Assembly: GCA_020060215.1 (NCBI GenBank)
Contig: JAGVAP010000011.1
Location: forward strand, 1-64,000
DNA: 64,000 nt
From: Deltaproteobacteria bacterium
Lineage (GTDB): Bacteria > Desulfobacterota > DSM-4660 > Desulfatiglandales > HGW-15
Direction: 5' to 3'
The position numbers and the translations under genes are program-made. This document shows, in pieces, positions 20,854 through 53,311 of this stretch (within the stretch, counting starts at the first letter, position 1; each line of letters starts with the position of its first letter). The notes under the pieces were generated by a model that was not told the origin of the DNA, did not search any database, and saw only the letters and a program-made list of their open reading frames with translations.

Positions 20854-20855
20854 AG

Positions 20856-20923
20856 ACGTGTAACGTGAACGTGCAACGTGGACGAAAGAAAGTCACCTCG
20901 TACACGCTACACGCTTCACGTAC
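20856..20923. repeat. Inverted word repeat (AACGTG / CACGTT-like)
   Basis: Left ACGTGTAACGTGAACGTGCA (20856-20875) and right CGTACACGCTACACGCTTCA (20899-20918) are degenerate reverse complements built on a 6-8 base word. It is located inside the ABC operon between ATPase and permease genes. Confidence 0.68.
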
Positions 20924-20959
20924 AGGATCAATGAAATCGGAAAGAAGTGGTGAAGCGGC

Positions 20960-21718
20960 ATGAAAGGAACCTCGAGGCCGGCCAGCATGCTCGTGGGACT
21001 TGCCATGTTTTTCGTTCTATGGCAGGTCCTTGCCTGGATCGTCCACAGGCCCGTGCTCCCTGCGCCGGCCGTGGTCCTCCCGGTCTTTCTCGATGCCCTC
21101 ACAGGGAGCCTGGGTGTCCATTTCCTTGCGAGCACGGCGCGGGTCCTGTGCGCCATCGCCTTGTCCGTGATCCTTGCGGTTCCCATCGGACTGGGGCTGG
21201 GTCAGTTCAAACAGGTCGACCGCGTCTTCTCTCCCCTCATCGCGATCCTGTATCCGATCCCCAAGATCGTGCTCCTGCCGGTGGTGTACATCCTGGTCGG
21301 CATCACGGACGTTTCCAAGGTGCTCCTCATCTCGCTCATCCTCTTCTTCCAGGTCCTGGTCGTGGTCAGGGATGAGGCCGCGGCACTCCATCCGGAACTG
21401 ATCCAGTCCGTGCGCTCCCTTGGGGCGGGCAGAAAGGCCCTTTTCCGTTACGTGTATCTGCCCGCAAGCCTTCCTGCCGTTCTCACGGCCATCCGCGTAT
21501 CGGTCGGCACAGCGATAGCGGTGCTCTTCATAGCCGAACAGTCCCTGACCCATTACGGGCTGGGGTACTACATCGTCGTGGAGACCTACCAGGTCCTGAG
21601 GTACCCGGAGATGTATGCCGGTATCCTGGCCATGAGTCTTCTCGGCGTCTTTCTGTATCTCGCGATCGAGACCGTGGAAAGGCGCGTGAACCGCCATCTC
21701 TATTCGGAGGGGGGTTGA
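20960..21718 (+). CDS. ABC importer permease (NitT/TauT family)
   Basis: Inner-membrane permease of 252 residues with about six hydrophobic segments and the coupling loop ELIQSVRSLGAGRKALFRYVYLPA, the EAA-type motif. PIPKIVLLPVVYI before it is typical of the SsuC/TauC group. Completes the importer of the two preceding genes. The menA start lies 20 bases past the stop. Confidence 0.9.
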   Translation: MKGTSRPASMLVGLAMFFVLWQVLAWIVHRPVLPAPAVVLPVFLDALTGSLGVHFLASTARVLCAIALSVILAVPIGLGLGQFKQVDRVFSPLIAILYPIPKIVLLPVVYILVGITDVSKVLLISLILFFQVLVVVRDEAAALHPELIQSVRSLGAGRKALFRYVYLPASLPAVLTAIRVSVGTAIAVLFIAEQSLTHYGLGYYIVVETYQVLRYPEMYAGILAMSLLGVFLYLAIETVERRVNRHLYSEGG

Positions 21719-21738
21719 GTCACCATGGGGAGGTCGGC

Positions 21739-22629
21739 GTGAAACGTGGAATCGGAGCCTGGCTGCTGGCCATCAGGCCACGCACCCTTCCGGCCGCCGT
21801 TTCTCCCGTCGTGGTGGGGACGGCTGCGGCCGCTGCCGACCATGGGATGCGATCCTACCCCGCGGCCGCTGCATTTGCCGGTGCGCTCCTTCTGCAGGTC
21901 GGTGTGAACCTGGCCAACGATTACTTCGACTACACCAAGGGCGTCGATACGGCGGAGAGGCTGGGACCCGTGCGGGTGACCCAGAGCGGTCTGATTCCTC
22001 CCCGGGAGGTCCTGGGGGGCATGTTCCTGGCCTTCTTCCTGGCCACGGCCGCGGGGACTTACCTGGTCTGGGAGGCGGGGTGGGTTGTGGCCGTGATCGG
22101 GGCTGCGTCCATCCTGGCGGCCGTGCTTTACAGCGGTGGACCGTTTCCCCTCGCCTCCCACGGACTGGGCGACCTCTTCGCCTTCCTCTTCTTCGGTCCG
22201 GTCGCGGTCTGCGGCACCTACTATGTGCAGACACTCCGCCTCAACCTCACCTCCCTGCTGATCTCCCTGCCGATCGGGTTCCTGGTCGCATCCATTCTGG
22301 TGGTGAACAACCTCAGAGACATATCCACGGATCTGAAGGTGGGCAAGCGAACGCTGGCCGTGGTCCTCGGCGCCAGGGGCGCAAGGGTGGAGTATGGGTT
22401 GCTTCTGATGACAGCCTATGGGCTGACCGTCATCCTTGCGGCGCTCGGGTCCATTCCGTCGTGGGGACTTCTGCCCCTTCTGTCCGCCCCAATGGCACTG
22501 AAGCTGATTCGATCGCTGCAGGTCTTGTCGGGCGGGGGCCTCAACCGGGCCCTTGCAGATACCGCCAGGCTCACCCTCATGTTCAGCCTTCTCATCTCCC
22601 TCGGGCTGCTCGTCCCTCTGTTGCGGTGA
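21739..22629 (+). CDS. menA: 1,4-dihydroxy-2-naphthoate (or related) polyprenyltransferase, UbiA family
   Basis: Membrane prenyltransferase joining a polyprenyl diphosphate to the naphthoate ring in menaquinone synthesis. NLANDYFDYTKGVDT is the first Asp-rich motif and NNLRDISTDLKVGKRTLAV the second, both diagnostic for MenA. About eight to nine hydrophobic segments; 296 residues. GTG 21739 is chosen because GGGGAGG lies 5 bases upstream; a TTG at 21715 overlapping the permease stop is the alternative. The 3' end, including the stop codon, is duplicated 101 bases downstream (see the repeat at 22606). Confidence 0.88.
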   Translation: MKRGIGAWLLAIRPRTLPAAVSPVVVGTAAAAADHGMRSYPAAAAFAGALLLQVGVNLANDYFDYTKGVDTAERLGPVRVTQSGLIPPREVLGGMFLAFFLATAAGTYLVWEAGWVVAVIGAASILAAVLYSGGPFPLASHGLGDLFAFLFFGPVAVCGTYYVQTLRLNLTSLLISLPIGFLVASILVVNNLRDISTDLKVGKRTLAVVLGARGARVEYGLLLMTAYGLTVILAALGSIPSWGLLPLLSAPMALKLIRSLQVLSGGGLNRALADTARLTLMFSLLISLGLLVPLLR

Positions 22630-29187: not shown

Positions 29188-29553
29188 TTGGAGAAGAAGA
29201 AAGTCCCGGTGATTCAAGAAGAGGTGAAGGTCGGGAAGCGCCCGAAGAGGAGCGGTGTCCTTAGGGTCCGGAAGAGAGTCCACGACCGGGAGGAGCTCGT
29301 GGAGCAACCCCTCCTGAAAGAGGAGGCTGTGGTCACGCGAGTCCCTGTGAACCGCTACCTGGAAACACCTGCGGAAATCCGTGAGGAGGACGGGGTGATC
29401 ATCGTTCCTCTCATGGAGGAGGTGGCGGTCGTGGAGAAACGATTGCTGCTCAAGGAAGAGATCCGCATCCAAAGAAGAAAGATGGAAGTGCGCGAGCATC
29501 AGAAGATCGTCTTGAGGAGTGAAGAGGCAGTGATCGAGCACAGCGGGAAATAG
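29188..29553 (+). CDS. DUF2382 (YsnF/AvaK) domain protein
   Basis: Small charged protein, 121 residues, made almost wholly of a DUF2382 domain: alternating Glu/Lys/Arg beta-strand-like segments such as EEVKVGKRPKRSGVLRVRK, REELVEQPLLKEEAVVTRVP and VVEKRLLLKEEIRI. The family is linked to general stress responses; no catalytic role is known. The start is TTG with AGGTGAT 6 bases upstream; no ATG or GTG fits better. The next gene, 19 bases on, has the same domain fused to a stress domain. Confidence 0.8.
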   Translation: MEKKKVPVIQEEVKVGKRPKRSGVLRVRKRVHDREELVEQPLLKEEAVVTRVPVNRYLETPAEIREEDGVIIVPLMEEVAVVEKRLLLKEEIRIQRRKMEVREHQKIVLRSEEAVIEHSGK

Positions 29554-29572
29554 ATCATGAGAGGTTCAGGGT

Positions 29573-30472
29573 ATGAGAACAATCGTAGGATTTTTTGACA
29601 AATACAAGGAAGCGGAGGGGCTTGTGAACGCCCTGGTGGAGCGCGGCTTCAACCGGGAGAATATCGATCTTGGCAGGACGGCCAAGGGGGAATCCGTGAA
29701 AGGGAAAAAGAGAGAAGGTTTTTTCGATTGGCTCTTCGGTTCTCCTGAGGAAAAGCATGAAGCTGTAAGGGGATACTACCCCGAGGGCCCGCACGGGGAA
29801 GAGGCCTATGTGGCCGTTTATGCGAGCGACACAGAAGCCATGCTCGCGCGGGACATCATGAGCAACCATGGCGTCGCGGACATAGAGGAGCGGTCGGAGG
29901 ATTGGATGGAGCCCGGTCGTTTTCGAGAAAGAGGCCCGTTGGGCATGGGAGCCGAGGGCGTTCTCCCGATCGCCGAGGAAGAAGTACGGGTTGGGAAGAG
30001 GGAGATCCCGAAGGGTAAGGTCCGCGTGACCAGCCATGTGACCGAGACGCCGGTGGAGGAGGATGTCCGTTTGAGGGAAGAACACGCCAAGGTCGAGCGG
30101 CGGCCCGTGGACCGGCCTCTTTCGGAGGCGGATAAGGAAGCCGCCTTCAGGGAGACTTCCTTTGAGGTCCACGAGACCGCCGAAGAGCCTGTGGTCTCGA
30201 AAGAGGCCAGGGTGAAGGAGGAAGTGATCATCGGCAAGGAGGAGACGGAGAGGATCGAGAGGGTTCGCGAGACCGCCAGACGCACGGATGTGGAGATCGA
30301 GGAAGAGGAGCTCGGAACGTACTCTGATCGGCTCAGAGAAGACATGCGGTTCAGGGGGAAGCGCTGGGCCGATATCGAAGAGGATGTCCGGGCGGACTGG
30401 GAGAGAGATCGTCCTGGGACCTGGAGCCGGTATCGGGATCCTCTGCGCCGTCGTTGGGAAGTGCGTGAATAG
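29573..30472 (+). CDS. YflT-like stress domain protein with C-terminal DUF2382
   Basis: 299 residues. Residues 1 to about 100 resemble the heat-induced stress protein YflT domain (TIVGFFDKYKEAEGLVNALVERGF at the start, VAVYASDTEAMLARDIMSNHG later). DUF2382 follows at about 130-240 (EEEVRVGKREIPKGKVRV, PVEEDVRLREEHAKVERRPVDRP). The tail is highly charged, ending in Trp/Arg-rich sequence. Likely an envelope or general stress protein; function not established. Same operon as the preceding gene. Confidence 0.82.
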   Translation: MRTIVGFFDKYKEAEGLVNALVERGFNRENIDLGRTAKGESVKGKKREGFFDWLFGSPEEKHEAVRGYYPEGPHGEEAYVAVYASDTEAMLARDIMSNHGVADIEERSEDWMEPGRFRERGPLGMGAEGVLPIAEEEVRVGKREIPKGKVRVTSHVTETPVEEDVRLREEHAKVERRPVDRPLSEADKEAAFRETSFEVHETAEEPVVSKEARVKEEVIIGKEETERIERVRETARRTDVEIEEEELGTYSDRLREDMRFRGKRWADIEEDVRADWERDRPGTWSRYRDPLRRRWEVRE

Positions 30473-30808: not shown

Positions 30809-32941
30809 ATGCGCCGGATCGTCCCGCCCGGATTCTCCCTGAATTCTCCGGACCGGAGGTTGAACGAGAATAGAACGACCATGCACCTTTCGATTCCGAC
30901 ATATGAATCAGATCAGACGTTCCCTGAGCGGGCCGCCCCTGGAAATCCATTGAATTCGGAAACCATAAGGCTCAAGATCAACCCGGTTACCCTCGCCTTT
31001 CGAGAGGAACAGGCCGATCTCGAGGCTCTCTTCCACCAGAATTATTTCAGGACCAACCTCGGGCACATGAGACTGGCCATGTCCATGGCTGCGTTGTTCT
31101 ACGGGCTCGCCGGGCTGGTGGAAAACACCTTCCTGCCCAGTGCATCCATGGCCATATGGGTGATCCGGTATGGGGTCGTGGTTCCGCTGTTCATCCTTGG
31201 CGTCTTCTTTTCCTTCACGCGCCATTATGAAAAATGCTGGTATGCCCTCTCATGCTTCTACATCCTGGCATCCGGGGGCGGCTTCGTCACGATGATCATT
31301 CTGGGGCCAAAGCCCGAGATCTATTCGTACTACGTAGGAGTGATCATTTGTCTGTTCTTCGGCTACACCTTTGCGCGGGAGAGGTTTATCCATGCCTCCC
31401 TTGCCGGCTGCATGGTTTCGACATTCTATGTGGCGGCGTCGATTTCAGTCGACACCCCCGTCAGGGATTTTCTTCATGGTATCCAGTACATTTTCATCGC
31501 GAATTCTCTGGGAATGATGACCTGCTACTACATCGAATACTCGGCGCGCAGGGACTTTCTCCTGGTCCACCTCTACCAGGAGGAACGGGAAAAGGTCGAG
31601 GCGGCGAATCTGAGGCTGGAAAAACGGGTGGAAGAGCGAACCGCGGATCTGACCTCCGCGAACCGGCGTCTGGTGGAAGAGATGGAGGCCCACAGGAGGG
31701 CTGAAAAACAGAAGGAGGAACTCGAATCGAGCCTGCGGCGCGCCCAGAAGATGGAATCCCTCGGAACCCTGGCAGGGGGGGTGGCCCATGACCTCAACAA
31801 CATCCTCTCCGGTGTTGTCAGCTACCCGGACCTGCTGTTGAGCGTGATCCCTAAAGACGACCCCTTCAGGGACTCCATTTCCCTCATCAAGAAATCCGGA
31901 GAAAAAGCGGCGGCCATCGTTCAGGATCTGTTGACCCTTGCCCGCCGGGGGGTAGCCATCTTTTCGGTCGTCAACCTGAATACGATCATCGATGAGTACA
32001 TCGGGAGTCCGGAATTCAGGAGACTGCAGGCCCATCACCCGAATGTGGAGTGCGACCTGAAGTTGGAGCCCCGATTGCGGAATGTCCTGGGGTCGCCGGT
32101 ACACCTGTCCAAGACGATCATGAACCTCGTATCGAATGCAGCCGAAGCCATGCCGGAGGGGGGCACGATCGAGATCCGCACGGGGGAAAGGGAAATCAAG
32201 GGCCCGGTAAGCGGCTGTCCGGATCTCAAGGCCGGTTGCTACGCCGCCGTAACCGTTTCGGACACCGGCGTGGGGATCCCCCCGGAGGATCTGGAAAAGA
32301 TATTCGAACCGTTCTATTCCAAGAAGGTCCTGGGGCGCAGCGGGACGGGTCTGGGGATGGCCGTGGTGTGGGGAACGGTTCATGACCATCATGGGTTCAT
32401 CGATGTCAAGAGCGTGCCCGGAAAGGGTACCACGTTTGAGCTGTATTTCCCTTCTACGGATCAGCCGATACGTGCTGAAAAGGAACGGATTCCGATCGAC
32501 CGCTACAAGGGCGAAGGCGAGTCCGTCCTGATCGTCGACGATGTCCGGGAACAGAGGGAAATCGCGTGCCAGATGCTGACCAGCCTGGGTTATTGCGTCA
32601 CCGCCCTGCAGAGCGGGGAGGCGGCTGTAGAATACATGAGGAGCCATTCAGTCGACCTGATCGTCCTGGATATGATCATGGATCCGGGGATCGACGGGCT
32701 TGAAACCTACCGGCAGATCATCGAACAACACCCCGGCCAGAGAGCCGTCATCGCAAGCGGCTTTTCCGAGACCCGGCGCGTCGCCGAACTGCAGGAGCTG
32801 GGGGCGGGTGAATACATCCGCAAGCCCTACAGCGTGGAAAAGCTTGGCGTGGCCGTCAAGAAGGCCCTCACCGGTCGGCCAGGGGGGCCACCGGAGCTTC
32901 ATCATCGGTCTGAAGCCGGTTCATCACACCAAGGGTGCTAA
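30809..32941 (+). CDS. Membrane hybrid histidine kinase with receiver domain
   Basis: Sensor kinase, 710 residues. About five to six hydrophobic segments (residues about 85-235) carry no recognised sensor domain. A coiled coil follows (EKVEAANLRLEKRVEERT), then HisKA with the phospho-His in GGVAHDLNNILSG, HATPase with NLVSNAAEAM, DTGVGIP and GTGLGMAVV, and a C-terminal receiver (VLIVDD; phospho-acceptor Asp in VLDMIMDPG; Lys in IRKPY). A later ATG at 30881 is possible. The stop TAA overlaps the Shine-Dalgarno of the PKS gene 13 bases downstream, so the two are almost certainly co-transcribed. No DNA-binding regulator is nearby. Confidence 0.88.
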   Translation: MRRIVPPGFSLNSPDRRLNENRTTMHLSIPTYESDQTFPERAAPGNPLNSETIRLKINPVTLAFREEQADLEALFHQNYFRTNLGHMRLAMSMAALFYGLAGLVENTFLPSASMAIWVIRYGVVVPLFILGVFFSFTRHYEKCWYALSCFYILASGGGFVTMIILGPKPEIYSYYVGVIICLFFGYTFARERFIHASLAGCMVSTFYVAASISVDTPVRDFLHGIQYIFIANSLGMMTCYYIEYSARRDFLLVHLYQEEREKVEAANLRLEKRVEERTADLTSANRRLVEEMEAHRRAEKQKEELESSLRRAQKMESLGTLAGGVAHDLNNILSGVVSYPDLLLSVIPKDDPFRDSISLIKKSGEKAAAIVQDLLTLARRGVAIFSVVNLNTIIDEYIGSPEFRRLQAHHPNVECDLKLEPRLRNVLGSPVHLSKTIMNLVSNAAEAMPEGGTIEIRTGEREIKGPVSGCPDLKAGCYAAVTVSDTGVGIPPEDLEKIFEPFYSKKVLGRSGTGLGMAVVWGTVHDHHGFIDVKSVPGKGTTFELYFPSTDQPIRAEKERIPIDRYKGEGESVLIVDDVREQREIACQMLTSLGYCVTALQSGEAAVEYMRSHSVDLIVLDMIMDPGIDGLETYRQIIEQHPGQRAVIASGFSETRRVAELQELGAGEYIRKPYSVEKLGVAVKKALTGRPGGPPELHHRSEAGSSHQGC

Positions 32942-32954
32942 GGAGACCTCTATC

Positions 32955-35900
32955 ATGGATGCAAAAGGCACTACTCTCCCCATCGCCGTGATCGGAATGG
33001 GCTGCCGGTATCCGGGGGCCGACTCACCTCGACAGCTGTGGGCCAACGTGCTCAGCCGCCGGCGGCAGTTCAGACGTATTCCGAAATGCCGACTTCCTCT
33101 GGAGGAGTATCACCACGAAGACCGACGGGAGGCAGACAGGACCTATCTCCGCATGGCCGCCGTGATCGACGGGTTCACGTTCGATTGGGTATCGCGGCGC
33201 ATACCGCGATCGACCTATCTGGCAACGGACGTCGTTCATTGGCTTGCCCTCGAAACGGCACTGCAGGCGGTTGCCGACGCGGGGTACACCGTCGAGACCT
33301 TTCCCGGCCCGCGCACCGGCGTGATCGTGGGCAACAGCCTGACCGGCGAACAGTCCCGGTCGTCCACCTTGCGGCTGAGATGGCCCTATGTGCGAAAAGC
33401 CTTCCTGGCCGCCGCCCGCCGGTCCCCCTTGGCGGCCGAGGAAGCCGGCGGATTGGAAAAGGTGTTGGAAACCTATTACAAGTCGGCCTTCCCCGAGGTC
33501 AACGAAGACACCCTGGCGGGCGGCCTCTCCAACACGATTGCGGGCCGCATCTGCAACTACCTGAACCTCGACGGCGGCGGCTATACCGTAGACGGGGCAT
33601 GCTCATCCTCCCTGCTGGCCATTGCCACGGCCGCCTCCGTCCTCTCTGCGGGGGACCTGGACCTGGCTCTGGCAGGGGGCGTCGACATCAGCCTCGATCC
33701 GTTCGAGCTGGTGGGGTTCGCCAGGACCGGCGCCCTGACATCGGGCGAGATGACCGTCTACGACCGGAGGGCCAGCGGATTCATCCCGGGGGAAGGGTGC
33801 GGGTTTGTCGTCCTGAAGCGGTACGAAGACGCGCTCAGGGACGGCAACGATGTCTATGCCGTGTTGCGGGGGTGGGGCATATCGTCGGACGGCGGCAATG
33901 CCTCCATCACCGCTCCGAGCGTCCCGGGTCAGGCGGAGGCCCTGAGAAGGGCATACGCCAAGGCGGGCTATGGCGCCGAGCAGCTGAGATTCATCGAAGG
34001 CCACGGCACCGGGACCGCCGTCGGCGACCGGGTCGAGGTGGAAGCGATCGCCTCCCTCTTCACCGATCTTCCTCTGCAGCGACCACCCGGCCGCTTCTGC
34101 GGCATCACCTCCCTGAAATCGATCATCGGTCATGCCAAGGCGGCAGCCGGGGTCGGCGGCTTCATCAAGGCCGTCATGGCGGTCAACCGCCGAGTTTGTC
34201 CGCCCACCGCAGGCTGCCGCACCCCCAACCGGGTATTCGAGGAATCTGCGAAACGGCTTTTCCCGGTCCTCATGGGAAAGCGGTTCCCCCCTGACGAGAC
34301 GGTACGGGCGGGGGTTTCGGCCATGGGGTTCGGCGGCATCAACAGCCATGTGACCATCGAATCGGCCGGAGGGCCCAGCTGCAGGTTTGACCCCGAGATG
34401 GATGAACGGGCCCTGATGGTCTCTTCGCAGGATGACGAGGTATTCGTCCTGACTGCGGATGATGAGTCCGATCTGGGTGCGAAATGCCGGGCACTGGCAG
34501 TGACGGTCGAGGGGATCAGTTACGCGGAACTGACGGACCTCGCGGCCGGTCTCGGGCAGAAAACGGATTCACGACATCGCCTGCGTGCGGCGGTGGTCGC
34601 AGGGAGTCCGGATGAACTGGCGGGAAAGCTCCGCAGATTGCATGTCATCCTGGAAACCGGGCCTCTGAACCCCGGCCGGGTATACCGGGAGGAATCGGAG
34701 CATCTCTGGCTGGGCCATCCGGGCAAACGTCCGCGTGTGGCCTTCCTGTTTCCCGGCCAGGGGTCGCAGAAACTGAACATGGCCAGGTTCCTGGTGGAAC
34801 GCTTTCCATGGGCCCGTGAGCTCGTGGAGCGCGCGGACCTGATATCCGGCGAATTCAAGACCACCCCCCTCAGTCAGATCATGTTCCCACCGATCGATCA
34901 GGCCGCTGACGCCGGCCAGTTCGAATCCTGGTTTCACGAACTGACCTTGACCGCCAACGCCCAGCCCGCAATCTGCCTGGCCTCGGTCTTATGGTGCCGG
35001 TTCCTGAGAGAGCTGGGGATCACGCCGGCGGTCGTCGGAGGCCACAGTCTCGGAGAGGCGACGGCGTTTTATGCGGCCGGCGGTTTCGATGAAACGACCC
35101 TCCTGCGTTTTGCCTTCACCCGCGGCCGGGCCATGACCCTGCCGCAGGAGATCGCCGGCGCCATGCTCGGCTTGCGATGCAACCGCCGCCAGGCCGAGGG
35201 CCTGCTCGGGAGGATCTCCGACGGGTACGTCGCACTGGCCAATATCAACGCACCCGACCAGGTGGTCGCTTCCGGAGAGCTTTCCGCGATCGAGCAGCTG
35301 AGCCGACTGGCCAGAGAAGAGGGGATCGCCGCCAGCCGATTGCCCGTCTCCAGCGCATTTCACTGCAGGCTGACCTCCCATGCCGCGAAAAAACTGGAGG
35401 AAGAGGCGAGTCTGCCGACCAGGCTGTCAAAGCCCTCAATCCGCCTGCTCAGCTGCATGGACGGCCGCGAGATCCCCGGGGGGCATGACCTGAAGAACCA
35501 CTTTGTCCAACAGGTCACCTCCCAGGTCGACTTCACGGCATTGGTTGAATCCGCAGCCCGCGGGTCGGACATCCTGGTCGAGGTCGGCCCCGGCCGGGTT
35601 CTAACGGGACTGGTCGGCGCAATTCTTCAAGGCGGCGGCCCCCCGTGTCTTCCGGTGGAATCGTCACCCTTTCAAACCACCGATCTGAACCGGCTGCTTG
35701 CCACCCTTTTCGTTCATGGGCTGGACATCCACTGGAATGGACTGTATGCCAACAGGCTGGTGTACCCCTTTGTCGCGCCGGCCGATCGATCCTTCATCGG
35801 GAATCCCTGCGAGACCCCGCTTGACGTCGAAACGGCCGATCCTCCCGACACCCAAGCCGGGGCACGGGGGTTGACGGCCTCCCTGCTGCCCGGCCTTGGC

Positions 35901-38900
35901 GATGTTCCGCTCACCACGCTGCGGTCCTACCTGGAGAAGCGCGGTCCGTTCCTGGCCGACGTCGTCAGGGCCGATCTCAAGTCCATGGCTCCGGAACAAC
36001 CGGTTGCGGATGTCGAGATGCGGCCGCCCTCCATGATCCGTCCGGACACAACCGACCCGAAACAGGACCGGCAGGTCGATCGGTCGGCGGAGGAGATCCT
36101 CTATGGGCTGGTCGAGGAGGTGACCGGGTTTCCAAAGGAGACGTTGACCCCCGAGGCCCGGCTCCTGGATGACCTGAACCTGGATTCCATTAAGTCGGGC
36201 GAGCTCATTGCACGATTCGCGAAACACTTCAATCTTTCCGGAGAGCTCGACCCCGCCGAATGGACCAACGCCTCGCTCGGAAGGATCGTCGATCTGATCG
36301 TTCATCGCCGTTCGGATCAGTCCGGGGCCGGCCATAAAGATCGGCTGCTGGACATCGCGGAGGTCCTGAGAACGCTCCTCGACCAGACCTCGCAGATCAC
36401 GGGGATCCCCTCCGGGGACATACCGATCGACGCCCCTGTCGGAGCCGGGCTGAAACTGGAGGCGGATCAACTCCATCTTGTCCTGACCGCCACTTCAAAG
36501 GTGCTCAAACGCGACCTGAACCTGGACCTGCAGCCGCTTCTCCATCGCAGCCTGGAACAGATTGCCGAGATTGTGGTCCGGATCGCGCGAAGCGGAGAGA
36601 AGGGCGACCTGAGACCGGTCCTCCATCTGTCCAACACCTGGGTTCGGGAACTGCGGATCGATGTCATAGAAAGTGAACGGCCCCCACTCCCTCCCTGGTA
36701 TGGAAAACGCGCAGAGGACCAGTGGCCCAACGCCCGGGTCCTGGTCCTGGGGGACGACCCGGAGGATGAGGTCTGTCACGCCATGGAGAGACACTTGAGC
36801 CGCCTGGGCGCCAGGGTGCTCGTAAAGAGCTTCGACTCAGCCCGGTCCGTGGAGTTCAGGCGGACGGTGGACGGGTTTTCCCATTTCATCGCCGTCCTGC
36901 CCCGCACAGCCCGGGTCTCCGATCCGTCCGAGGACGATGTGAAGCACATGGTCCATCGTCTGTCCTTTGCGGCGGCTCCGCCGCCGGCCAGCCATGGACC
37001 CAGGCGCCGTAACTGCCTGGGTTTTGTCCAGTTCGGGGGGGGCTTTTTCGGTATTCGCCCGGATGCACCGTTCCTGGACCAGTGCTGCGCGACCGCATTG
37101 GCCAAGAGCGTCTATCTCGAGCGCGACGATCTGAAGACCCGGGTGATCGACTTTGATCCCGGGATCGGGGCGAAGGATATAGCGGAAAAGACGATCCTGG
37201 AGATGCAGGGGCCGCAGGATTTTGCGGAAGTGGGTTACGATCACCGGTTGATCCGGCGCACCCCCGTCGCGAACGCCATCGAACCAGCCCAGTACGACAG
37301 AGACCCGATCACTTGGTCGAGCAAGGATGTCATCCTGGCGACCGGGGGCGCAAAGGGGATTACCGCGGAATGCGCATTCGCCCTGGCCCGGACCCTGGGA
37401 ACCGGAATGGCCCTGGTCGGAAGAACGCCGATCCCGGATCCGGGAGCCGCCGGTCCCGAGGGAGAGAAGATCCTCGAGATCCTCCGGCGATATAGTGACC
37501 AGGGGCTTCAGGCCCGTTATTACAGCTGCGACATCTGCGACCGAAGATCCCTGGCGGAAACGGTAAGGCAGATTCAAAGAGAGATGGGTCCAATAACGGG
37601 TGTCATCCACGGAGCAGGCCGGAATTCCCCACGACGATTTCACCAGGTTCCCGTGGAAGAGGCGCTCAAAGAAGTCGCTCCGAAAGTGATCGGCGCCCTC
37701 AACCTGCTCTCCCTGCTGCAGGAGGCCCCTCCGAAGATCATTGTCGGGCTCACTTCCAGCATCGGAATCACCGGAATGCAGGGCAATGCGTGGTATGCGT
37801 TTTCCAACGAGGCCCTGGATCTCATCCTTCGGCGCTACGGGGCGAACCACCCGACGACGCGAACGCTGTCCGTGGCCTACAGCATCTGGCGCGACGAAGG
37901 AATGGGGGCCAGGATGGGGAGCGTCCAGGTCCTCAAGAGACAGGGAATCGATGCCATCCCCACGAAAGAAGGGGTCAAACGGTTCATCCGCCTGTTTCTC
38001 CGCAACCCCGGGACCCACCAGGTCCTCGTGGCCGCCCGCATGACGCAAATGGATACCCTGGGAACGCCGGCCGCGCCTCCTGTGGAGGGGGCGAGGTTTC
38101 TTGAAAAACGGATTCACTACATCCCCGGGGTCGAATCCGCGTTCCTGGTTCACCTCTCCCTGGAGGAGGATCTGTATCTCCAGGACCATTGCTACAACGG
38201 TTCCTACCTTTTCCCGGCGGTCTTCGGTCTGGAGGCCATGGCCCAGGCTGTCGCCCATGTGACCGGGGTCACCGGATTCCGCGGCGTGCGGGTGGAGAAC
38301 CTCTTGTTGAGGCGGCCGATCATCGTAGACCCGGAGAAGGGTGCGGACATCATCGTCTGGGCCCAGGCAGAGGAGCGCGCTGCCGCCGAAGATCCTTTGT
38401 CCGTCCGGGCAGGGATAGCCAGGGTCGGCGTGGATTCAAACCCGGATTTCTTCTCAGCCACCTTCATCATGGGGTCATGGGACTCCCCCCACAGGCAGCC
38501 TCCAGAGCTCCCCGCCGAACCCCTCGATCTTGATCCCCCGACAGACCTGTACCGCAACACCTTCCTGTTTCAGGGGCCTCGTTTTCAACGCTTCGACCGG
38601 GTCCATCTGCTGGAGCGTTCCTCGGACGACTCGGGGGTCGCGGTCATCAGCGTCCGGCCTTCGGAAGAGGATTGCGCCAGGCTCGCCTTTGCCGGCCCGG
38701 AACACCACGCACTCTTGCTAGGGGATCCTTTCCAGCGGGACAACCTGCTCCAGTCGGTGACCCTGCTGGTCCCCCAGGAGGGGGCCCTTCCGCTCTCCGT
38801 CCGCCGCTGGGACATCTACCCCCGGCGCATGTCGGGACAGGTTCGGATGCTCGTGCAGACCCGCCTCCTTGGGTTGCAGCAGGACGAAATCGACACGTCG

Positions 38901-40742
38901 GTGGAATCCTTCGACCCCTCCGGTCTGCCGGCGGAGACGCTGGATGGATTTCGTTTGAAGGTCCTGAAACACCATGATGAACATCCGACCACGGCCGACC
39001 TGTTGCACCCCGACGACCGCGACACGAGAGAGGTGCAGAAAAGGATCTCCGAACTTGCCGCCGGGCTTCGTCTGCGGATCCCGCTGGTCCGTGTGTCTCA
39101 CCTGCCGGGCCTTCACGAAAAGACCAGACAGGAACGGAGGGAGGCTGAGCTCCCTCTGCTGAACAAGGCCGTCGAGCAATGGGCGGAGCGCAGAAACGGA
39201 AACCGATCGGCGGTGAGGATCGAGTGGGAGCCCTCCGGGCGACCGGCGGCATGGATCGGCGATGAAGCGGTGGGCGTCTCCCTTGCCCACGATGCGCGCT
39301 ACTGCATCGTTGCGGTCGGGGCTGCTCCCCTCGGGTGCGACCTGGCCCCGGTTCTGCATCGCACGCTGGAGCAGTGGCACGCGCTCCTGGGCCCTTTCGG
39401 AAGGGCCCTGATCGAGGGGAACCTGGCCGAAGAGGAGATCGATCGCCGCGGGACGGCGCTCTGGGCCGCAAGGGAAGTCCTGCAGAAGCTGAACGTGAAG
39501 GAGACCCTGTCCATCGGACTTGAAAAGCCGAGCGAGGACACCCTCCTGTTTCTCTGCACGACGGAAAAGAGGGTGATCAAGGTTCTCGCCTTCCGGGCGG
39601 TCTTCACCCTGGGCGGAGAAGGGGTGGTCGCCCTGTCCGTAGGCGATTCCCAGGCTTCGATCATGGCCGACGATGCGCAAGCGGTCGACTATCCGGGGTA
39701 TGAATCCCTGTTCGATCGGCAACATTTCAGGCTGATCAAAGGGGGTCCCCAGGGGCAGGCCGTCTTTGTTCACCGCTTTCCGGTCACGTTCATGCCGGTC
39801 GGACAACTCAGCCGGCACGTCTATTACTCCCACTACTTCTTCTGGGCCGGGACGGTCCGTGAGGCCTCTGCCTGGCCCGTGCTGGGAAAGATCGCCGACC
39901 AGTTCTCGACCGGGAAATGGGGCGGCGTGACCAATTTTGCGGACCTGAAAATCCTGGGAGAGGCAACGACTCACGACCTGGTTGAGGTGCGGATGTGGTC
40001 ATCAGGCAACGGCGGCCCGCAGAACTCCGTCCTGGACCTGACCTACGACTTCAGGAAGGTGCTGCCGACGGGCGGATACGAGCGCCTTGCCTGGCTGGAG
40101 CAGAAAACGACCTGGGTGAGGATCCTCGATCACGGCGTCGCCAAGGTGGAACCCTATCCCGATTATTATGCCGACTTCATTGATTACATGCTGCCCCGAT
40201 ACGATGGTCCCAACTCTCCGGAGCCGATCGCAGAGCCTCTTCAGCCGTTGTTCGAGCATGGGGGCGAGGATGATCTGTACATGGCCCCGCCCGGGCCCGC
40301 AGTCAAACCGGTCCTTCACAGCCAGTGGATAGAGACCTCCCTGGAGGAGGTCAACATCGTCGGAAATATCTACTTCGCCAACTACTACGCATGGCAGGGG
40401 AGGGTCCGCGACCGGTATCTGTATGATCTTATCCCGGACCATTTCCGGGGCACCGGAGAGAAGGGGGAGCTGATCTGTCTGAACTGCCGCACAGACCACC
40501 TTCGGGAAGCGATGCCTTTTGAGCGCGTCGAGGTGAGAATGGCGCTGAAAGCGCTCAAGACATGTCGCGCCACCCTTCACTTCGAATACTTCAAACCCGG
40601 TCACGACGGCAGCCCCGTGAAGCTGGCCACCGGAAGACAGGAGGTGGTCTGGGTGCAGAGGGACGCCCAGGGGCGTCCCGTACCCCATCCTTTCCCGTCG
40701 GCGGTTCAGGCGGCCTTCCTGGGAGCGGTCGAGGCGAAATGA
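32955..40742 (+). CDS. Iterative type I polyketide synthase of enediyne-PKS type with two fused thioesterase domains
   Basis: Giant synthase, 2595 residues; start 32955 has AAGGAG upstream. Order with approximate residues: KS 10-465 (Cys216 in GACSSSL, His350, His393); AT 590-890 (Ser698 in GHSLGE); ACP 1030-1110 (Ser1078 in LNLDSIKS); an ACP-like segment 1120-1205 with no acceptor Ser; KR with its structural part 1215-1700 (TGGAKGIT near 1463, Tyr1614); DH 1715-1990 (His1745 in DHCYNGSYLFP); 4'-phosphopantetheinyl transferase 2040-2230 (GCDLAPV with Asp2129, WAAREVLQK with Glu2174); hotdog domains 2255-2430 and 2450-2595. KS-AT-ACP-KR-DH-PPTase is the enediyne PKS order. The last domain carries NIVGNIYFANYYAWQGRVRD, like CalE7/SgcE10 thioesterases. 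It likely makes a linear polyene; no other enediyne genes are near. Confidence 0.88.
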   Translation: MDAKGTTLPIAVIGMGCRYPGADSPRQLWANVLSRRRQFRRIPKCRLPLEEYHHEDRREADRTYLRMAAVIDGFTFDWVSRRIPRSTYLATDVVHWLALETALQAVADAGYTVETFPGPRTGVIVGNSLTGEQSRSSTLRLRWPYVRKAFLAAARRSPLAAEEAGGLEKVLETYYKSAFPEVNEDTLAGGLSNTIAGRICNYLNLDGGGYTVDGACSSSLLAIATAASVLSAGDLDLALAGGVDISLDPFELVGFARTGALTSGEMTVYDRRASGFIPGEGCGFVVLKRYEDALRDGNDVYAVLRGWGISSDGGNASITAPSVPGQAEALRRAYAKAGYGAEQLRFIEGHGTGTAVGDRVEVEAIASLFTDLPLQRPPGRFCGITSLKSIIGHAKAAAGVGGFIKAVMAVNRRVCPPTAGCRTPNRVFEESAKRLFPVLMGKRFPPDETVRAGVSAMGFGGINSHVTIESAGGPSCRFDPEMDERALMVSSQDDEVFVLTADDESDLGAKCRALAVTVEGISYAELTDLAAGLGQKTDSRHRLRAAVVAGSPDELAGKLRRLHVILETGPLNPGRVYREESEHLWLGHPGKRPRVAFLFPGQGSQKLNMARFLVERFPWARELVERADLISGEFKTTPLSQIMFPPIDQAADAGQFESWFHELTLTANAQPAICLASVLWCRFLRELGITPAVVGGHSLGEATAFYAAGGFDETTLLRFAFTRGRAMTLPQEIAGAMLGLRCNRRQAEGLLGRISDGYVALANINAPDQVVASGELSAIEQLSRLAREEGIAASRLPVSSAFHCRLTSHAAKKLEEEASLPTRLSKPSIRLLSCMDGREIPGGHDLKNHFVQQVTSQVDFTALVESAARGSDILVEVGPGRVLTGLVGAILQGGGPPCLPVESSPFQTTDLNRLLATLFVHGLDIHWNGLYANRLVYPFVAPADRSFIGNPCETPLDVETADPPDTQAGARGLTASLLPGLGDVPLTTLRSYLEKRGPFLADVVRADLKSMAPEQPVADVEMRPPSMIRPDTTDPKQDRQVDRSAEEILYGLVEEVTGFPKETLTPEARLLDDLNLDSIKSGELIARFAKHFNLSGELDPAEWTNASLGRIVDLIVHRRSDQSGAGHKDRLLDIAEVLRTLLDQTSQITGIPSGDIPIDAPVGAGLKLEADQLHLVLTATSKVLKRDLNLDLQPLLHRSLEQIAEIVVRIARSGEKGDLRPVLHLSNTWVRELRIDVIESERPPLPPWYGKRAEDQWPNARVLVLGDDPEDEVCHAMERHLSRLGARVLVKSFDSARSVEFRRTVDGFSHFIAVLPRTARVSDPSEDDVKHMVHRLSFAAAPPPASHGPRRRNCLGFVQFGGGFFGIRPDAPFLDQCCATALAKSVYLERDDLKTRVIDFDPGIGAKDIAEKTILEMQGPQDFAEVGYDHRLIRRTPVANAIEPAQYDRDPITWSSKDVILATGGAKGITAECAFALARTLGTGMALVGRTPIPDPGAAGPEGEKILEILRRYSDQGLQARYYSCDICDRRSLAETVRQIQREMGPITGVIHGAGRNSPRRFHQVPVEEALKEVAPKVIGALNLLSLLQEAPPKIIVGLTSSIGITGMQGNAWYAFSNEALDLILRRYGANHPTTRTLSVAYSIWRDEGMGARMGSVQVLKRQGIDAIPTKEGVKRFIRLFLRNPGTHQVLVAARMTQMDTLGTPAAPPVEGARFLEKRIHYIPGVESAFLVHLSLEEDLYLQDHCYNGSYLFPAVFGLEAMAQAVAHVTGVTGFRGVRVENLLLRRPIIVDPEKGADIIVWAQAEERAAAEDPLSVRAGIARVGVDSNPDFFSATFIMGSWDSPHRQPPELPAEPLDLDPPTDLYRNTFLFQGPRFQRFDRVHLLERSSDDSGVAVISVRPSEEDCARLAFAGPEHHALLLGDPFQRDNLLQSVTLLVPQEGALPLSVRRWDIYPRRMSGQVRMLVQTRLLGLQQDEIDTSVESFDPSGLPAETLDGFRLKVLKHHDEHPTTADLLHPDDRDTREVQKRISELAAGLRLRIPLVRVSHLPGLHEKTRQERREAELPLLNKAVEQWAERRNGNRSAVRIEWEPSGRPAAWIGDEAVGVSLAHDARYCIVAVGAAPLGCDLAPVLHRTLEQWHALLGPFGRALIEGNLAEEEIDRRGTALWAAREVLQKLNVKETLSIGLEKPSEDTLLFLCTTEKRVIKVLAFRAVFTLGGEGVVALSVGDSQASIMADDAQAVDYPGYESLFDRQHFRLIKGGPQGQAVFVHRFPVTFMPVGQLSRHVYYSHYFFWAGTVREASAWPVLGKIADQFSTGKWGGVTNFADLKILGEATTHDLVEVRMWSSGNGGPQNSVLDLTYDFRKVLPTGGYERLAWLEQKTTWVRILDHGVAKVEPYPDYYADFIDYMLPRYDGPNSPEPIAEPLQPLFEHGGEDDLYMAPPGPAVKPVLHSQWIETSLEEVNIVGNIYFANYYAWQGRVRDRYLYDLIPDHFRGTGEKGELICLNCRTDHLREAMPFERVEVRMALKALKTCRATLHFEYFKPGHDGSPVKLATGRQEVVWVQRDAQGRPVPHPFPSAVQAAFLGAVEAK

Positions 40743-40757
40743 GTGACCCTCGCTGCG

Positions 40758-41621
40758 TCACAGGAACGTCTCCACCAGTTCCTCCGCCTTGGAAGGGTCC
40801 AGCTTCAGTCGGTTGAGGGGGCCCTTCCTGAGCGCAGGGACCCGCTCCTCGAAGGACTGCGCCTTGCCGTTGCGGTAGAAGATCCCAATGGGGACCCGGT
40901 CGCCCCACTCGCGGGACTTGTGGATGGCCGCCACCAGGTCCTCGGGGTCGTGTCCTTCCTCGTTCAGGTCGTAGATCCGCTCCTCATACCACCGGAAGGT
41001 GTGGATTCGGTCGAAGGTCACGCACGGCTGCAGCACATCCACCAGGGAAAACCCCTGCACCTGCATCGCTTCCTTGATCAATCCGGTCAGATGCGGGATT
41101 CGTCCCGCAAACCCTCGGGCCACGAAAGGCGCCTCGAAGAGGGAGGCGATGGCGAGCGGGTTGAAGGGGGTCAGGAAGACCCCATGGCCCTGGACCTTGG
41201 TCACGAACCCCCTCTCGGTGGTCGGCGATGCCTGACCCAGGGTGAGACCGAAGACCTGGTTGTTGTGGGTGATCAGGGTGAGGTTCACATTCCGGCGAAG
41301 GGCGTGGATGAAATGGTTCCCCCCTTCTCCGTAGCTGTCGCCGTCGCCGCCGATGACGACAACGGGGATCCTCGTTTCGGCTATCCTGATTCCGGTCGCC
41401 ACGGGGAGGGCCCGGCCGTGAAGACCGTTGAACATGTTCCCTCTCATGTAGTGAGGCAGTTTTCCGGCCTGGCCGATGCCCGAGACCATGATGACCTCGT
41501 GAGGCTTCAGGCCGAGTTCGGCCAGGGACTGTTTGACCGCTCTCAGGATGGAAAAGTTGCCGCATCCCGGGCACCAGGCAATGGGGAAGTCATTGTCGAA
41601 ATCCTTTGGGGAACTCTTCAT
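40758..41621 (-). CDS. korB: 2-oxoacid:ferredoxin oxidoreductase beta subunit (KorB-like)
   Basis: TPP-binding subunit, 287 residues. WCPGCGNFSIL starts the domain, and GDGDSYGEGGNHFIHALRRN with NNQVFGLTLGQ forms the TPP/Mg motif. With the fused gamma-alpha partner it forms a two-gene oxidoreductase that decarboxylates a 2-oxoacid (2-oxoglutarate or pyruvate class) to acyl-CoA and reduces ferredoxin. ATG 41621 has AAGGAGGTG upstream and overlaps the korA stop by 4 bases. It converges with the PKS gene, leaving 15 bases between stops and no obvious terminator. Confidence 0.87.
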   Translation of the reverse strand: MKSSPKDFDNDFPIAWCPGCGNFSILRAVKQSLAELGLKPHEVIMVSGIGQAGKLPHYMRGNMFNGLHGRALPVATGIRIAETRIPVVVIGGDGDSYGEGGNHFIHALRRNVNLTLITHNNQVFGLTLGQASPTTERGFVTKVQGHGVFLTPFNPLAIASLFEAPFVARGFAGRIPHLTGLIKEAMQVQGFSLVDVLQPCVTFDRIHTFRWYEERIYDLNEEGHDPEDLVAAIHKSREWGDRVPIGIFYRNGKAQSFEERVPALRKGPLNRLKLDPSKAEELVETFL

Positions 41622-43360
41622 CGGCCGAGCACCTCCTTCCTGAATCCCTCGACGATCTCGGACGCCGTAAACGGCCTCCCCGTATACTTCAGGATGTGGG
41701 CGTCCGGTTTCCTCCCGAGCTCCATGGTCATGAGACGGGCGAACTGTCCGGTGAAATTGATCTCCGCCACCGCCCACCTCCGAGCCCCCTTCAATGCATT
41801 CTCGGCATGAATACGGGGGAAAGGCCAGATCTCGCCGAAGTGCACTCCCCGGACGTCCACACCATCCCTGTTGAGGATCTCGATCGCCTCCGAGACCGCG
41901 CCCAGGGTGGAGCCCCAGCTCACGAGCAGCAGCTCCGCCTTGGGATTACCCAGCGTCCTCGGGGGGGAGATCTCCTTCTCCATGCCGGCGAGCTTTCGAA
42001 AACGCTTCTCGTTCATCTCCCTTCGAACCTCGGGCTCTTCCGTGATGTGGCCCCATTCGTCATGTTCATGGCTGTCCGAGATCACCTCGAAGCCGAAGGC
42101 CGAAGGGATGGAGCGCGGGGATATGCCCGATTCCGTGACCGCGTACCTCTTGTACTCCTTGACCCCGCGGGCCTCCTCCTCGTTCACCAGATGCCGGTCG
42201 ATCCGGATGGAGGAGACATCGAAGCGCTCTTCCGTGTAATAGCAGTCGGCAAGGTACTCGTCGGTCAGGATGACGACAGGCACATGGTACTTCTCCGCAA
42301 GGTCAAAACCCTTCACGGTCGCAGAGAAAGCTTCCCCCGGTGTGGCCGGCGCGAATACAAACCTCGGGAACTCTCCCTGGGACGCGTGGACCACGAAGAG
42401 CAGGTCGCCCTGCTCCGTTCGTGTGGGGAGTCCGGTGGCCGGGCCAGGTCTCTGTCCTTCCACCACCACGAGCGGCGTCTCGGAGACGGCCGCCAGACCG
42501 AAGGCCTCCGTCATGAGGCTGAACCCTCCCCCTGAGGTGGCGGTCATGGAACGGACCCCGCCGTAGGAAGCGCCGATGGCCATGTTGATGGCGGCGATCT
42601 CGTCCTCCGCCTGTTCCACAACGAGATCGAAGGGCTCCCCGTGTTCCGCAAGAAACGTGAGGATGGCCGTGGAAGGACTCATGGGATAGGCCGTAAAGAA
42701 ACGGCACCCTGCGGCGATCGCGCCCAGGCAGACCGCTTCATGCCCCGTGATGAGCATCCTTGACGCCTTGTCGAGAGGCGAAAAGCCGGGCCGCTCCAAG
42801 GTTTCGGACTGCTTCACGGCCGCTTCATACCCGGCCTTGGCCGCCTTCACGTTTCGCTCCCCCGCTTCCCCTTCAAAACGGGAGGCCAGGTACTCTGTAA
42901 GGTATCTCAGGTCCCAGCCGATGATCCCCAGGGCGGCCCCGGCTGCGACCGTATTCGCGTAGACCCTGCTGCCGCCGGCTTCCTTGGCGATCTCCTCGAA
43001 GGCGAGCCCGACGACAGGATGACTTTGCCCCTCGGGCGGGCTGCCCTTCTGCGAGTCATAGAGGATGACACCGGAGGGGCCGAGTTCCTGGCTGTGCAGC
43101 CCTATGCTTTCTCCCGTCAGGGCGATCAAAAGGTCCAGCGGCAACGCATGACAACCCACGGGTCTCCGGGTAACCCGCATGTGGAAGAAATTGTGACCTC
43201 CGCGGATGCGGGACTCCTTGTCCTGAAGCGCAAAGACATGCCAGGCTCCTCTGACGAAGACCTTCCCCAGGATCACCGAAAGGGTTTCTATTCCCTGGCC
43301 CGCTGCACCGGCAGCGAGCAGATTGAATTCAGAGACGCTGTTCTTGTGATTGGCAGCCAT
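41618..43360 (-). CDS. korA: 2-oxoacid:ferredoxin oxidoreductase gamma-alpha fusion (KorA-like)
   Basis: 580 residues in two parts. Residues about 10-190 are the gamma domain (AAGAAGQGIETLSVILGKVF, ESRIRGGHNFFHMRV). Residues about 210-580 are the alpha pyrimidine-binding domain (AAGCRFFTAYPMSPSTAIL, VVEQAEDEIAAINMAIGAS, TATSGGGFSLMTEAFG). This is the KorA layout known from 2-oxoglutarate:ferredoxin oxidoreductase with separate ferredoxin. No delta ferredoxin subunit is adjacent. It is distinct from the four-gene complex at 50.4-53.1 kb. Substrate could be 2-oxoglutarate, feeding the TCA module upstream. Confidence 0.87.
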   Translation of the reverse strand: MAANHKNSVSEFNLLAAGAAGQGIETLSVILGKVFVRGAWHVFALQDKESRIRGGHNFFHMRVTRRPVGCHALPLDLLIALTGESIGLHSQELGPSGVILYDSQKGSPPEGQSHPVVGLAFEEIAKEAGGSRVYANTVAAGAALGIIGWDLRYLTEYLASRFEGEAGERNVKAAKAGYEAAVKQSETLERPGFSPLDKASRMLITGHEAVCLGAIAAGCRFFTAYPMSPSTAILTFLAEHGEPFDLVVEQAEDEIAAINMAIGASYGGVRSMTATSGGGFSLMTEAFGLAAVSETPLVVVEGQRPGPATGLPTRTEQGDLLFVVHASQGEFPRFVFAPATPGEAFSATVKGFDLAEKYHVPVVILTDEYLADCYYTEERFDVSSIRIDRHLVNEEEARGVKEYKRYAVTESGISPRSIPSAFGFEVISDSHEHDEWGHITEEPEVRREMNEKRFRKLAGMEKEISPPRTLGNPKAELLLVSWGSTLGAVSEAIEILNRDGVDVRGVHFGEIWPFPRIHAENALKGARRWAVAEINFTGQFARLMTMELGRKPDAHILKYTGRPFTASEIVEGFRKEVLGR

Positions 43361-52823: not shown

Positions 52824-53055
52824 GATAGACCTCGATGGCTACCTCAGGACATACGATCGCACACTGGCAGCAGCCGGTGCAGCTCTTCAAGCCTTCGGCG
52901 GAGTTTTCGTTGAAACATGCAGGGATGTAGCCCTTCTGGTTGAGGGACTTGTCCGGGCCGATCCGGTGGTTCGGGCAGACCTCAAAGCAAAGCTGACAAC
53001 CTTTGCATCGCTCCCTGTTGATCTTGATCTTTCCTTTTGCCTTCTTCTCACCCAT
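52813..53055 (-). CDS. 2-oxoacid:ferredoxin oxidoreductase delta subunit (2[4Fe-4S] ferredoxin)
   Basis: 80-residue ferredoxin with CKGCQLCFEVCP and CTGCCQCAIVCP, the two [4Fe-4S] motifs that relay electrons out of the TPP site. ATG 53055 is chosen because the first cluster starts about 17 residues in, as in the family; the frame upstream is non-coding leader. It is first in the operon, about 75 bases downstream of a strong predicted promoter. Confidence 0.9.
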   Translation of the reverse strand: MGEKKAKGKIKINRERCKGCQLCFEVCPNHRIGPDKSLNQKGYIPACFNENSAEGLKSCTGCCQCAIVCPEVAIEVYRAK

Positions 53056-53137
53056 ATTTCGCTGCCGCAACCTGTTTTTGGTTCGCCTACTTTTTCGTCG
53101 CCTCTCCCAAGAAGAGGCTTCGTTCGCAAAAACACAA

Positions 53138-53166
53138 CGTATAGGATCAAAACGGTTTGTTGTCAA
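53138..53166 (-). promoter_or_regulatory. Strong predicted sigma70 promoter of the 2-oxoacid oxidoreductase operon
   Basis: Minus-strand TTGACA (53161-53166), 17 bases, TATACG (53138-53143). It lies in the 256-base divergent spacer shared with fdhA; no fdhA promoter of similar quality was seen. Confidence 0.7.
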
Positions 53167-53311
53167 TAAAATTTTACCTTTTCTGCGTCGGTCCTGTGAG
53201 AGATTTATATTGAAAAACCGCCTCTTTCTGATATATTCCAAATCGCTGAGAGGGAGGGGGCGCTTCTCCACCTCCCTCTCTTTCTTCGTATTTCCTCATC
53301 GAGGTCTGTAC

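What the first reader, a model, noticed from the sequence alone, without database searches (positions are those of the whole stretch)
32955..40742. Enediyne-type PKS in a probable Desulfobacterota genome without an enediyne cluster
The domain order KS-AT-ACP-KR-DH-PPTase and the CalE7/SgcE10-like end are hallmarks of enediyne PKSs, known mainly from actinomycetes. None of the usual accessory genes (E3/E4/E5/E11 type) is within the window. A self-activating, self-releasing single-gene polyene or polyketone synthase in an anaerobe would be a distinct branch. The product could be a linear polyene hydrocarbon, a lipid or a pigment.
Basis: partly seen in the sequence, partly recalled or inferred. 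Interest (0 to 1): 0.82.

Follow-up and report, generated by a model that had tools for sequence, protein, structure and literature searches.

The report
Self-contained polyene synthase beside sensor kinase
An uncultured bacterium, probably a relative of sulfate reducers, carries one giant enzyme that should build and release a chain of alternating double bonds, encoded next to a sensor kinase and not with the usual enediyne-making genes, which points to a pigment, lipid or signal rather than an enediyne.

Summary
Window 32955-40742 (+) encodes a 2595-aa enediyne-type iterative PKS: KS-AT-ACP-(decayed ACP)-KR-DH-PPTase-hotdog-hotdog, with the expected catalytic residues. Its KS groups with actinomycete enediyne-type KSs and apart from PfaA (100/99; AU p 0.0098). 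The PPTase region has the Sfp/PptT fold. The tail is a double hotdog shaped like FatA acyl-ACP thioesterase; its second half is CalE7/DynE7-like. Proteins of the enediyne cassette (E3/E4/E5 types) were not found in the window, nor beyond trace local hits in 24 PKS-bearing genomes of the class. I expect a free linear polyene.

Related kinases hold the same place in six other loci whose remaining genes differ, although the kinase is not exclusive to PKS loci. In other lineages the PKS adjoins other signalling proteins (kinase-HD-GYP giants, 7TM kinases, GGDEF-EAL); cyanobacterial relatives mostly sit with halogenase-type genes.

The KS clade in anaerobic Deltaproteobacteria is already in print (PMC10308959). 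I did not see the fused double-hotdog architecture or the sensor pairing in my paper searches, which were mostly listings. Boldest reading not excluded: a polyene signal synthase with its own sensor, analogous to RpfF/RpfC or RpfF/RpfR.

The parts
32955..40742 (+). enediyne-type iterative type I PKS, 2595 aa, with cis PPTase and tandem hotdog thioesterase
32979..34217 (+). KS domain (C216, H350, H393 present)
   Evidence: Pfam; residues; trees
34743..35606 (+). AT domain (S698, H803 present)
36099..36296 (+). ACP (S1078 in LNLDSIKS)
36336..36599 (+). decayed second ACP slot, DSI motif lost; intact in L032, L053, L079 and P0059; limits approximate
   Evidence: alignment
37332..37892 (+). KR domain (Y1614, N1618)
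38133..38975 (+). DH domain (H1745, D1929, Q1933)
39012..39662 (+). Sfp-type PPTase domain (D2129, E2174 present; third metal-ligand position is A2131)
39726..40244 (+). hotdog 1, first half of the double hotdog
   Evidence: model; 24.6% to hotdog 2; SgcE10 hit 8.6e-5
40287..40739 (+). hotdog 2, CalE7/DynE7-like thioesterase (N2467, Y2477, R2485)
30809..32941 (+). hybrid histidine kinase: membrane sensor, HisKA, HATPase, receiver; 13 bases before the PKS, same strand
   Evidence: Pfam; relatives; spacing
32940..32945 (+). ribosome-binding site AAGGAG of the PKS, overlapping the kinase stop codon
   Evidence: sequence

Best explanation
It is a self-contained iterative polyene synthase. Its own PPTase arms the ACP; KS and AT extend the chain from malonyl units; KR and DH leave a double bond each round, as no ER was found; the C-terminal double hotdog hydrolyses the finished polyene from the ACP, giving a free polyenoic or beta-keto polyenoic acid that may decarboxylate to a polyene hydrocarbon or methyl ketone. 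Shown here: domain set and order, catalytic residues, KS placement, predicted folds of PPTase and double hotdog, enediyne-core genes not found. Inferred: activity, chain length, product. The gene is probably co-transcribed with the hybrid kinase before it (13-base gap), and I infer that the two work in one pathway.
Against: No product or expression data. The window PPTase lacks the third acidic residue and gives no Pfam hit alone, so a trans PPTase may be needed. The second ACP slot is decayed. In 11 of 120 listed proteins a CrtI-like flavin domain is fused, so some family products are modified further. The kinase's sensor domain occurs in 99 of 389 class genomes, and in a sensor-only tree the seven PKS-adjacent sensors are not one clade (p-AU 0.0124).
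Confidence: 0.8

Rival explanations
1. It is part of a true enediyne pathway whose other genes lie elsewhere in the genome.
For: Enediyne-type KS and CalE7-like end. The window's own genome is not held, so it cannot be searched.
Against: In 24 PKS-bearing genomes of the class: the DUF1702 (E3-type) query gave one 53-residue hit at 8.8e-4, E5 none, E4 two short hits in one genome, best 8.8e-6; the C-1027 plasmid rang in all three. In print, enediynes only from Actinobacteria and ascidian extracts (PMC10308959).
Confidence: 0.04
2. It is a lipid synthase in the PUFA manner: the polyene goes into membrane lipids or hydrocarbons and stays in the cell.
For: PfaA is the neighbouring KS group. An HpnN-type lipid transporter gene follows the PKS in L028. 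5 of 10 PKS genomes searched also carry PfaA-type genes over the family cut-off, so such hosts may make secondary lipids.
Against: A clade of the non-actinomycete KSs with PfaA is rejected (p-AU 0.0098); no ER or second KS among the domains found, and no KS in the 40 further window ORFs scanned.
Confidence: 0.2
3. It makes a pigment or antibacterial polyene, like aryl polyenes or celluxanthenes, and the neighbouring kinase only regulates it.
For: Anaerobes make iterative-PKS polyene pigments (celluxanthenes, PMC12144888, parts 1 and 2 of 4 read). 23 of 26 cyanobacterial loci share a halogenase-type family near the PKS (family from one member).
Against: Nothing adjacent in the window looks like a tailoring enzyme, ligase or exporter; a UbiA prenyltransferase (21715-22629) and an ABC transporter (19094-21718) lie 10 kb and more from the PKS among unrelated genes. 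The cex cluster has a separate PPTase and other genes; kinship of CexF was not tested.
Confidence: 0.45
4. The kinase next door is a chance neighbour.
For: 17 of 31 loci of the Desulfobacterota-like set have no signalling ORF directly beside the PKS, some for want of flank. Relatives of the kinase occur elsewhere: 20 of 20 fetched ones have no PKS in the few kilobases round them.
Against: Related kinase next upstream, same strand, in 7 loci whose other genes differ; signalling ORFs at position -1 in 12 of 29 loci against 20 of 162 at the other positions, with the biases told under Tried and rejected.
Confidence: 0.15

Closest known systems
PksE enediyne synthases (SgcE of C-1027, CalE8, DynE8)
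   Same: KS clade, order KS-AT-ACP-KR-DH-PPTase, KS/AT/KR/DH residues; SgcE aligns at 42% over a 950-residue KS-AT half and 30% over 822 residues further on
   Different: SgcE is 1939 aa and a thioesterase gene lies separately in its cluster. Here about 2600 aa with a double hotdog in cis, DSIK ACP motif, decayed second ACP, no E3/E4/E5-type gene found
CalE7/DynE7/SgcE10 polyene thioesterases
   Same: hotdog 2 matches at 5e-19 to 2e-17, DynE7 fold TM-score 0.89-0.90, N/Y/R aligned to CalE7 positions 19, 29, 37 (catalytic role recalled)
   Different: fused to the PKS and paired with a diverged hotdog 1 into a double hotdog like FatA
Deltaproteobacterial/marine-sediment enediyne KS clade (PMC10308959)
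   Same: probably the same branch, reported there at KS level, anaerobes included
   Different: no fused thioesterase or sensor partner in the passages I read; identity of the clades not tested sequence by sequence
Celluxanthene synthase CexF (PMC12144888)
   Same: iterative polyene PKS in anaerobes
   Different: lies in a cluster with separate PPTase, KAS III, ligase and ACP; sequence kinship not tested
DSF systems RpfF/RpfC/RpfG and RpfF/RpfR
   Same: an unsaturated-acyl synthase with dehydratase and thioesterase activities, paired with a hybrid kinase plus REC-HD-GYP, or with a PAS-GGDEF-EAL receptor (PMC4698668, PMC3744752, passages)
   Different: RpfF is a crotonase, not a PKS; no evidence that these kinases sense the product; five of the six GGDEF-EAL neighbours show no PAS in Pfam

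Membership tests
Enediyne-type (PksE) KS clade | KS groups with actinomycete PksE to the exclusion of PfaA and ordinary KS | tested here: met
   33-row tree, 100/99; 94-row tree, SH-aLRT 99
Enediyne-type (PksE) PKS | KS-AT-ACP-KR-DH-PPTase in one chain | tested here: met
Enediyne-type (PksE) PKS | makes a conjugated polyene | not testable with these tools
   needs expression
Enediyne PKS cassette E3/E4/E5/E/E10 (definition from PMC5181780) | E3, E4 and E5 present beside the PKS | tested here: not met
   64 kb window; 24 PKS-bearing class genomes. Which C-1027 proteins are E3, E4, E5 is taken from gene order and recall. The host genome itself is not held, so genome-wide absence is not shown for it
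Enediyne PKS cassette | E10-type thioesterase | tested here: met
   fused C-terminal hotdog
PUFA synthase (PfaA) | KS inside the PfaA clade; over the TIGR02813 cut-off | tested here: not met
   542.8 bits against 1010.1
CalE7/DynE7 thioesterase | sequence and fold match, N/Y/R site | tested here: met
Sfp-type PPTase | fold | tested here: met
Sfp-type PPTase | metal-binding acids | tested here: inconclusive
   two of three present, A2131 at the third; roles recalled
DSF signalling system | crotonase-family RpfF synthase | tested here: not met
   the synthase is a PKS; no crotonase domain in it
DSF signalling system | partner perceives the product | not testable with these tools
   needs experiment

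The most novel reading that the evidence does not exclude
The PKS and the adjacent sensor form a signalling unit: an enediyne-type PKS makes a free polyenoic signal, and the neighbouring hybrid kinase (or, in other lineages, a 7TM kinase with REC-HD-GYP, or a GGDEF-EAL protein) perceives it. It would be a DSF-like system built independently on a polyketide synthase, in several phyla.
Probability: 0.15. Interest if true: 0.88.

Novelty: new variant of a known kind. Interest (0 to 1): 0.6.

Why it matters
It separates the enediyne-type polyene engine from enediynes: here it stands with its own activation and release domains and without the core-forming genes, so genome miners should not read such hits as enediyne producers. 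One gene plus one kinase is small enough to test directly for product and for signalling, and the repeated pairing with phosphorelay and c-di-GMP proteins gives a concrete hypothesis for what such polyenes do.

Tried and rejected
Rejected: a true enediyne pathway; PfaA membership. The + strand ORF 40743-41810, right after the PKS stop, has no family match and the opposite strand there encodes a POR beta subunit, so I treat it as spurious.

Kinase specificity, results against my reading. The sensor domain is in 99 of 389 class genomes: in 21 of the 24 PKS genomes and 78 of the other 365 (my count; Fisher), but kinship confounds this. The four best sensor matches are PKS-adjacent; the adjacent ones of G148 and G266 (L010, L145) rank below many that are not. 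I then fetched 20 non-adjacent kinases, none with a PKS in the stretch. On sensor plus kinase the seven adjacent ones fall in a group of eight with one outsider (88/85) and one clade is not rejected (p-AU 0.263); on the sensor alone one clade is rejected (p-AU 0.0124), with L010 and L145 apart from the other five. L010 and L145 are 85% alike, so they are nearly one observation. L004's upstream kinase, cut by the contig end, is different (31% in the kinase part). In L005 the gap to the PKS is 800 bases; elsewhere 13 to 103, or an overlap.

Adjacency counts and their weaknesses. Simple ORF caller; phmmer seeds taken from signalling proteins in these same loci, which favours finding their relatives; loci are related, so p-values are not probabilities. 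Directly beside the PKS a signalling ORF is in 14 of 31 Desulfobacterota-like loci, 10 of 31 of other phyla, 2 of 26 cyanobacterial. Non-cyanobacterial pooled: 25 of 102 adjacent positions against 21 of 245 at positions 2-4 (p 1.2e-4); cyanobacterial 2 of 47 against 3 of 124 (p 0.42). Against the reading: 8 loci have a divergent 537-613 aa gene upstream instead (shared family by sequence in 4, the rest by size and place).

Paper searches: (10 of 10). Listings only, except: passages of PMC10308959, PMC4247773, PMC3107222, PMC5181780, PMC8725005, PMC4698668, PMC3744752, and parts 1-2 of 4 of PMC12144888. Rfam and tRNA scans of the window found nothing.

Full report
What is there. The ORF at 32955-40742 (+) gives 2595 aa. 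Pfam places KS 9-421, AT 597-884, one PP-binding domain 1049-1114, KR 1460-1646, DH 1727-2007 and 4HBT_2 2463-2588. An alignment with 30 homologues, actinomycete PksEs and other references shows KS C216/H350/H393, AT S698/H803, ACP S1078, KR Y1614/N1618 and DH H1745/D1929/Q1933 (most positions checked). A second ACP slot follows but has lost its DSI motif; it is intact in L032 (Laceyella), L053 (Shimazuella), L079 (Methylococcus) and P0059. Of 103 proteins over 2300 aa from the set (window included), simple patterns find the KS cysteine motif in 103, the hotdog-2 motif in 95, and one, two or no ACP motifs in 70, 23 and 10 (near misses count as absent).

Phylogeny. KS identity to the window is 51-53% for six actinomycete enediyne-type PKSs (four with cassette genes annotated beside them, two in unannotated records), 34-38% for six PfaA-type KSs (five from genes over the TIGR02813 cut-off, L088 under it) and 28-30% for two ordinary PKSs. 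In a 94-row quick tree the enediyne-type branch has SH-aLRT 99, the actinomycetes 100. In a careful 33-row tree the enediyne-type branch has 100/99 and its non-actinomycete part 95/98; a clade of the non-actinomycete rows with PfaA is rejected at p-AU 0.0098. The nearest row is a Desulfosarcina MAG (L003, 77%). The genome scan gave 384 relatives by tblastn, of which the best 80 were kept; these span Desulfobacterota, Nitrospirota, Myxococcota, Bacteroidota, Bacillota, Cyanobacteria and others. Of 389 genomes drawn from the class of D. widdelii, 24 match the KR-to-end half at E 1e-60.

Not an enediyne cluster. The cassette is defined as E3/E4/E5/E/E10 (PMC5181780, passages). I took E3, E4, E5 as the DUF1702, CRTAC1 and RnfD-like genes before SgcE (names by order and recall). 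None hits the window. In the 24 genomes: one 53-residue DUF1702 hit (8.8e-4), no E5, two short E4 hits in one genome (best 8.8e-6); the C-1027 plasmid was the positive control. DUF1702 homologues occur in nine cyanobacterial loci; CRTAC1 and RnfD-like ones in none of the fetched loci L002-L082 at 1e-5. In the window I scanned 43 ORFs besides the PKS: the kinase before it and two ORFs likely spurious, and 40 more. They read mostly as central metabolism: succinate/fumarate enzymes, aconitase, citrate synthase, POR, NADH and molybdopterin oxidoreductases, Rnf-like genes, radical SAM, UbiA, an ABC transporter. I saw no biosynthetic cluster round the PKS.

The partner. A hybrid histidine kinase, 30809-32941, lies 13 bases upstream. 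Related kinases are next upstream and codirectional in L003 (64%), L005 (62%), L022 (53%), L028 (53%), L010 (45%) and L145 (44%). Between these loci and the window no other gene is shared (ORFs of 90 aa or more) except one of 333 aa between L003 and L145, leaving aside antisense ORFs within the two genes and further kinases (the six against the full window). Flanks are short in some: L010 holds almost nothing before its kinase, L003 1.4 kb after the PKS. Kinase trees give mixed support for one lineage of PKS-linked kinases (see Tried and rejected). Elsewhere the PKS adjoins Ser/Thr-kinase-AAA-GAF-PAS-HD-GYP giants (L015; L026, L073), a related giant plus REC-HD-GYP (L007; L020), 7TM kinase, second kinase and REC-HD-GYP in a row (L037; L009 alike), 7TM-GAF kinases (L059, L068), a hybrid kinase and REC-HATPase (L063), GGDEF-EAL without a Pfam PAS (five loci of the Nitrospirota clade) and PAS-GGDEF-EAL in Methylococcus (L079). 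Counts and bias are under Tried and rejected.

Reading. The enzyme should make and release a linear polyene. The pairing with sensors recalls both kinds of DSF circuit: hybrid kinase RpfC with REC-HD-GYP RpfG, and PAS-GGDEF-EAL RpfR, the RpfF homologue being a dehydratase-thioesterase acting on an ACP thioester (PMC4698668, PMC3744752, passages). That the polyene is the ligand is only a hypothesis; regulation of a pigment or lipid gene explains the pairing too and is likelier.

Known or new. The KS branch in anaerobic Deltaproteobacteria and marine sediment is in print (PMC10308959, passages), as are cyanobacterial enediyne-type KSs (PMC4247773, passages). I did not see the cis double-hotdog architecture or the sensor pairing in ten paper searches, mostly listings, of a library that lacks most subscription journals.

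Noticed in passing
window 53003-56086 (+), TGA at 54449: Two same-frame ORFs separated by one in-frame TGA encode a molybdopterin oxidoreductase; the context DHCARL-stop-HASTVAGL and a stem-loop just after (-20.9 kcal/mol, z -2.1) suggest a selenocysteine formate dehydrogenase-type subunit.
   Followed up: partly
P0096-P0101, P0103, P0107-P0110; L009 664-10266, L037 3446-13078; L016 19107-20579, L033 15422-16966: A CrtI/carotenoid-isomerase-like flavin domain is fused at the C-terminus in 11 of 120 listed proteins and in L009 and L037, or encoded just downstream (L033 next gene, L016 second gene); it may desaturate or isomerise the polyene.
   Followed up: partly
L002 7353-23409: Gloeothece plasmid: the PKS is split in two genes, followed by three tryptophan-7-halogenase genes and a carotenoid oxygenase; the halogenase-type family is in 23 loci, all cyanobacterial (cluster 1).
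   Followed up: partly
L006 8098-9939 (-), L046 7924-9537 (-) and equivalents: Desulfosarcina-type loci carry a divergent gene of about 540-610 aa beside the PKS; no Pfam match for L006, no NCBIfam match for L006 and L046.
   Followed up: no
G300:C116 and G300:C163: One genome matches the KR-to-end half twice, 72% and 47% identical to the window.
   Followed up: no
window 29188-30472 (+): Two adjacent DUF2382 proteins before the kinase.
   Followed up: no
L004 2-1411; L010 274-2187; L145 10330-12243: PKS-adjacent kinases seem to mix sensor and kinase halves: L004 shares 44% over 63 sensor residues but 31% in the kinase part, and sensor-only and longer kinase trees disagree on L010 and L145.
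   Followed up: partly
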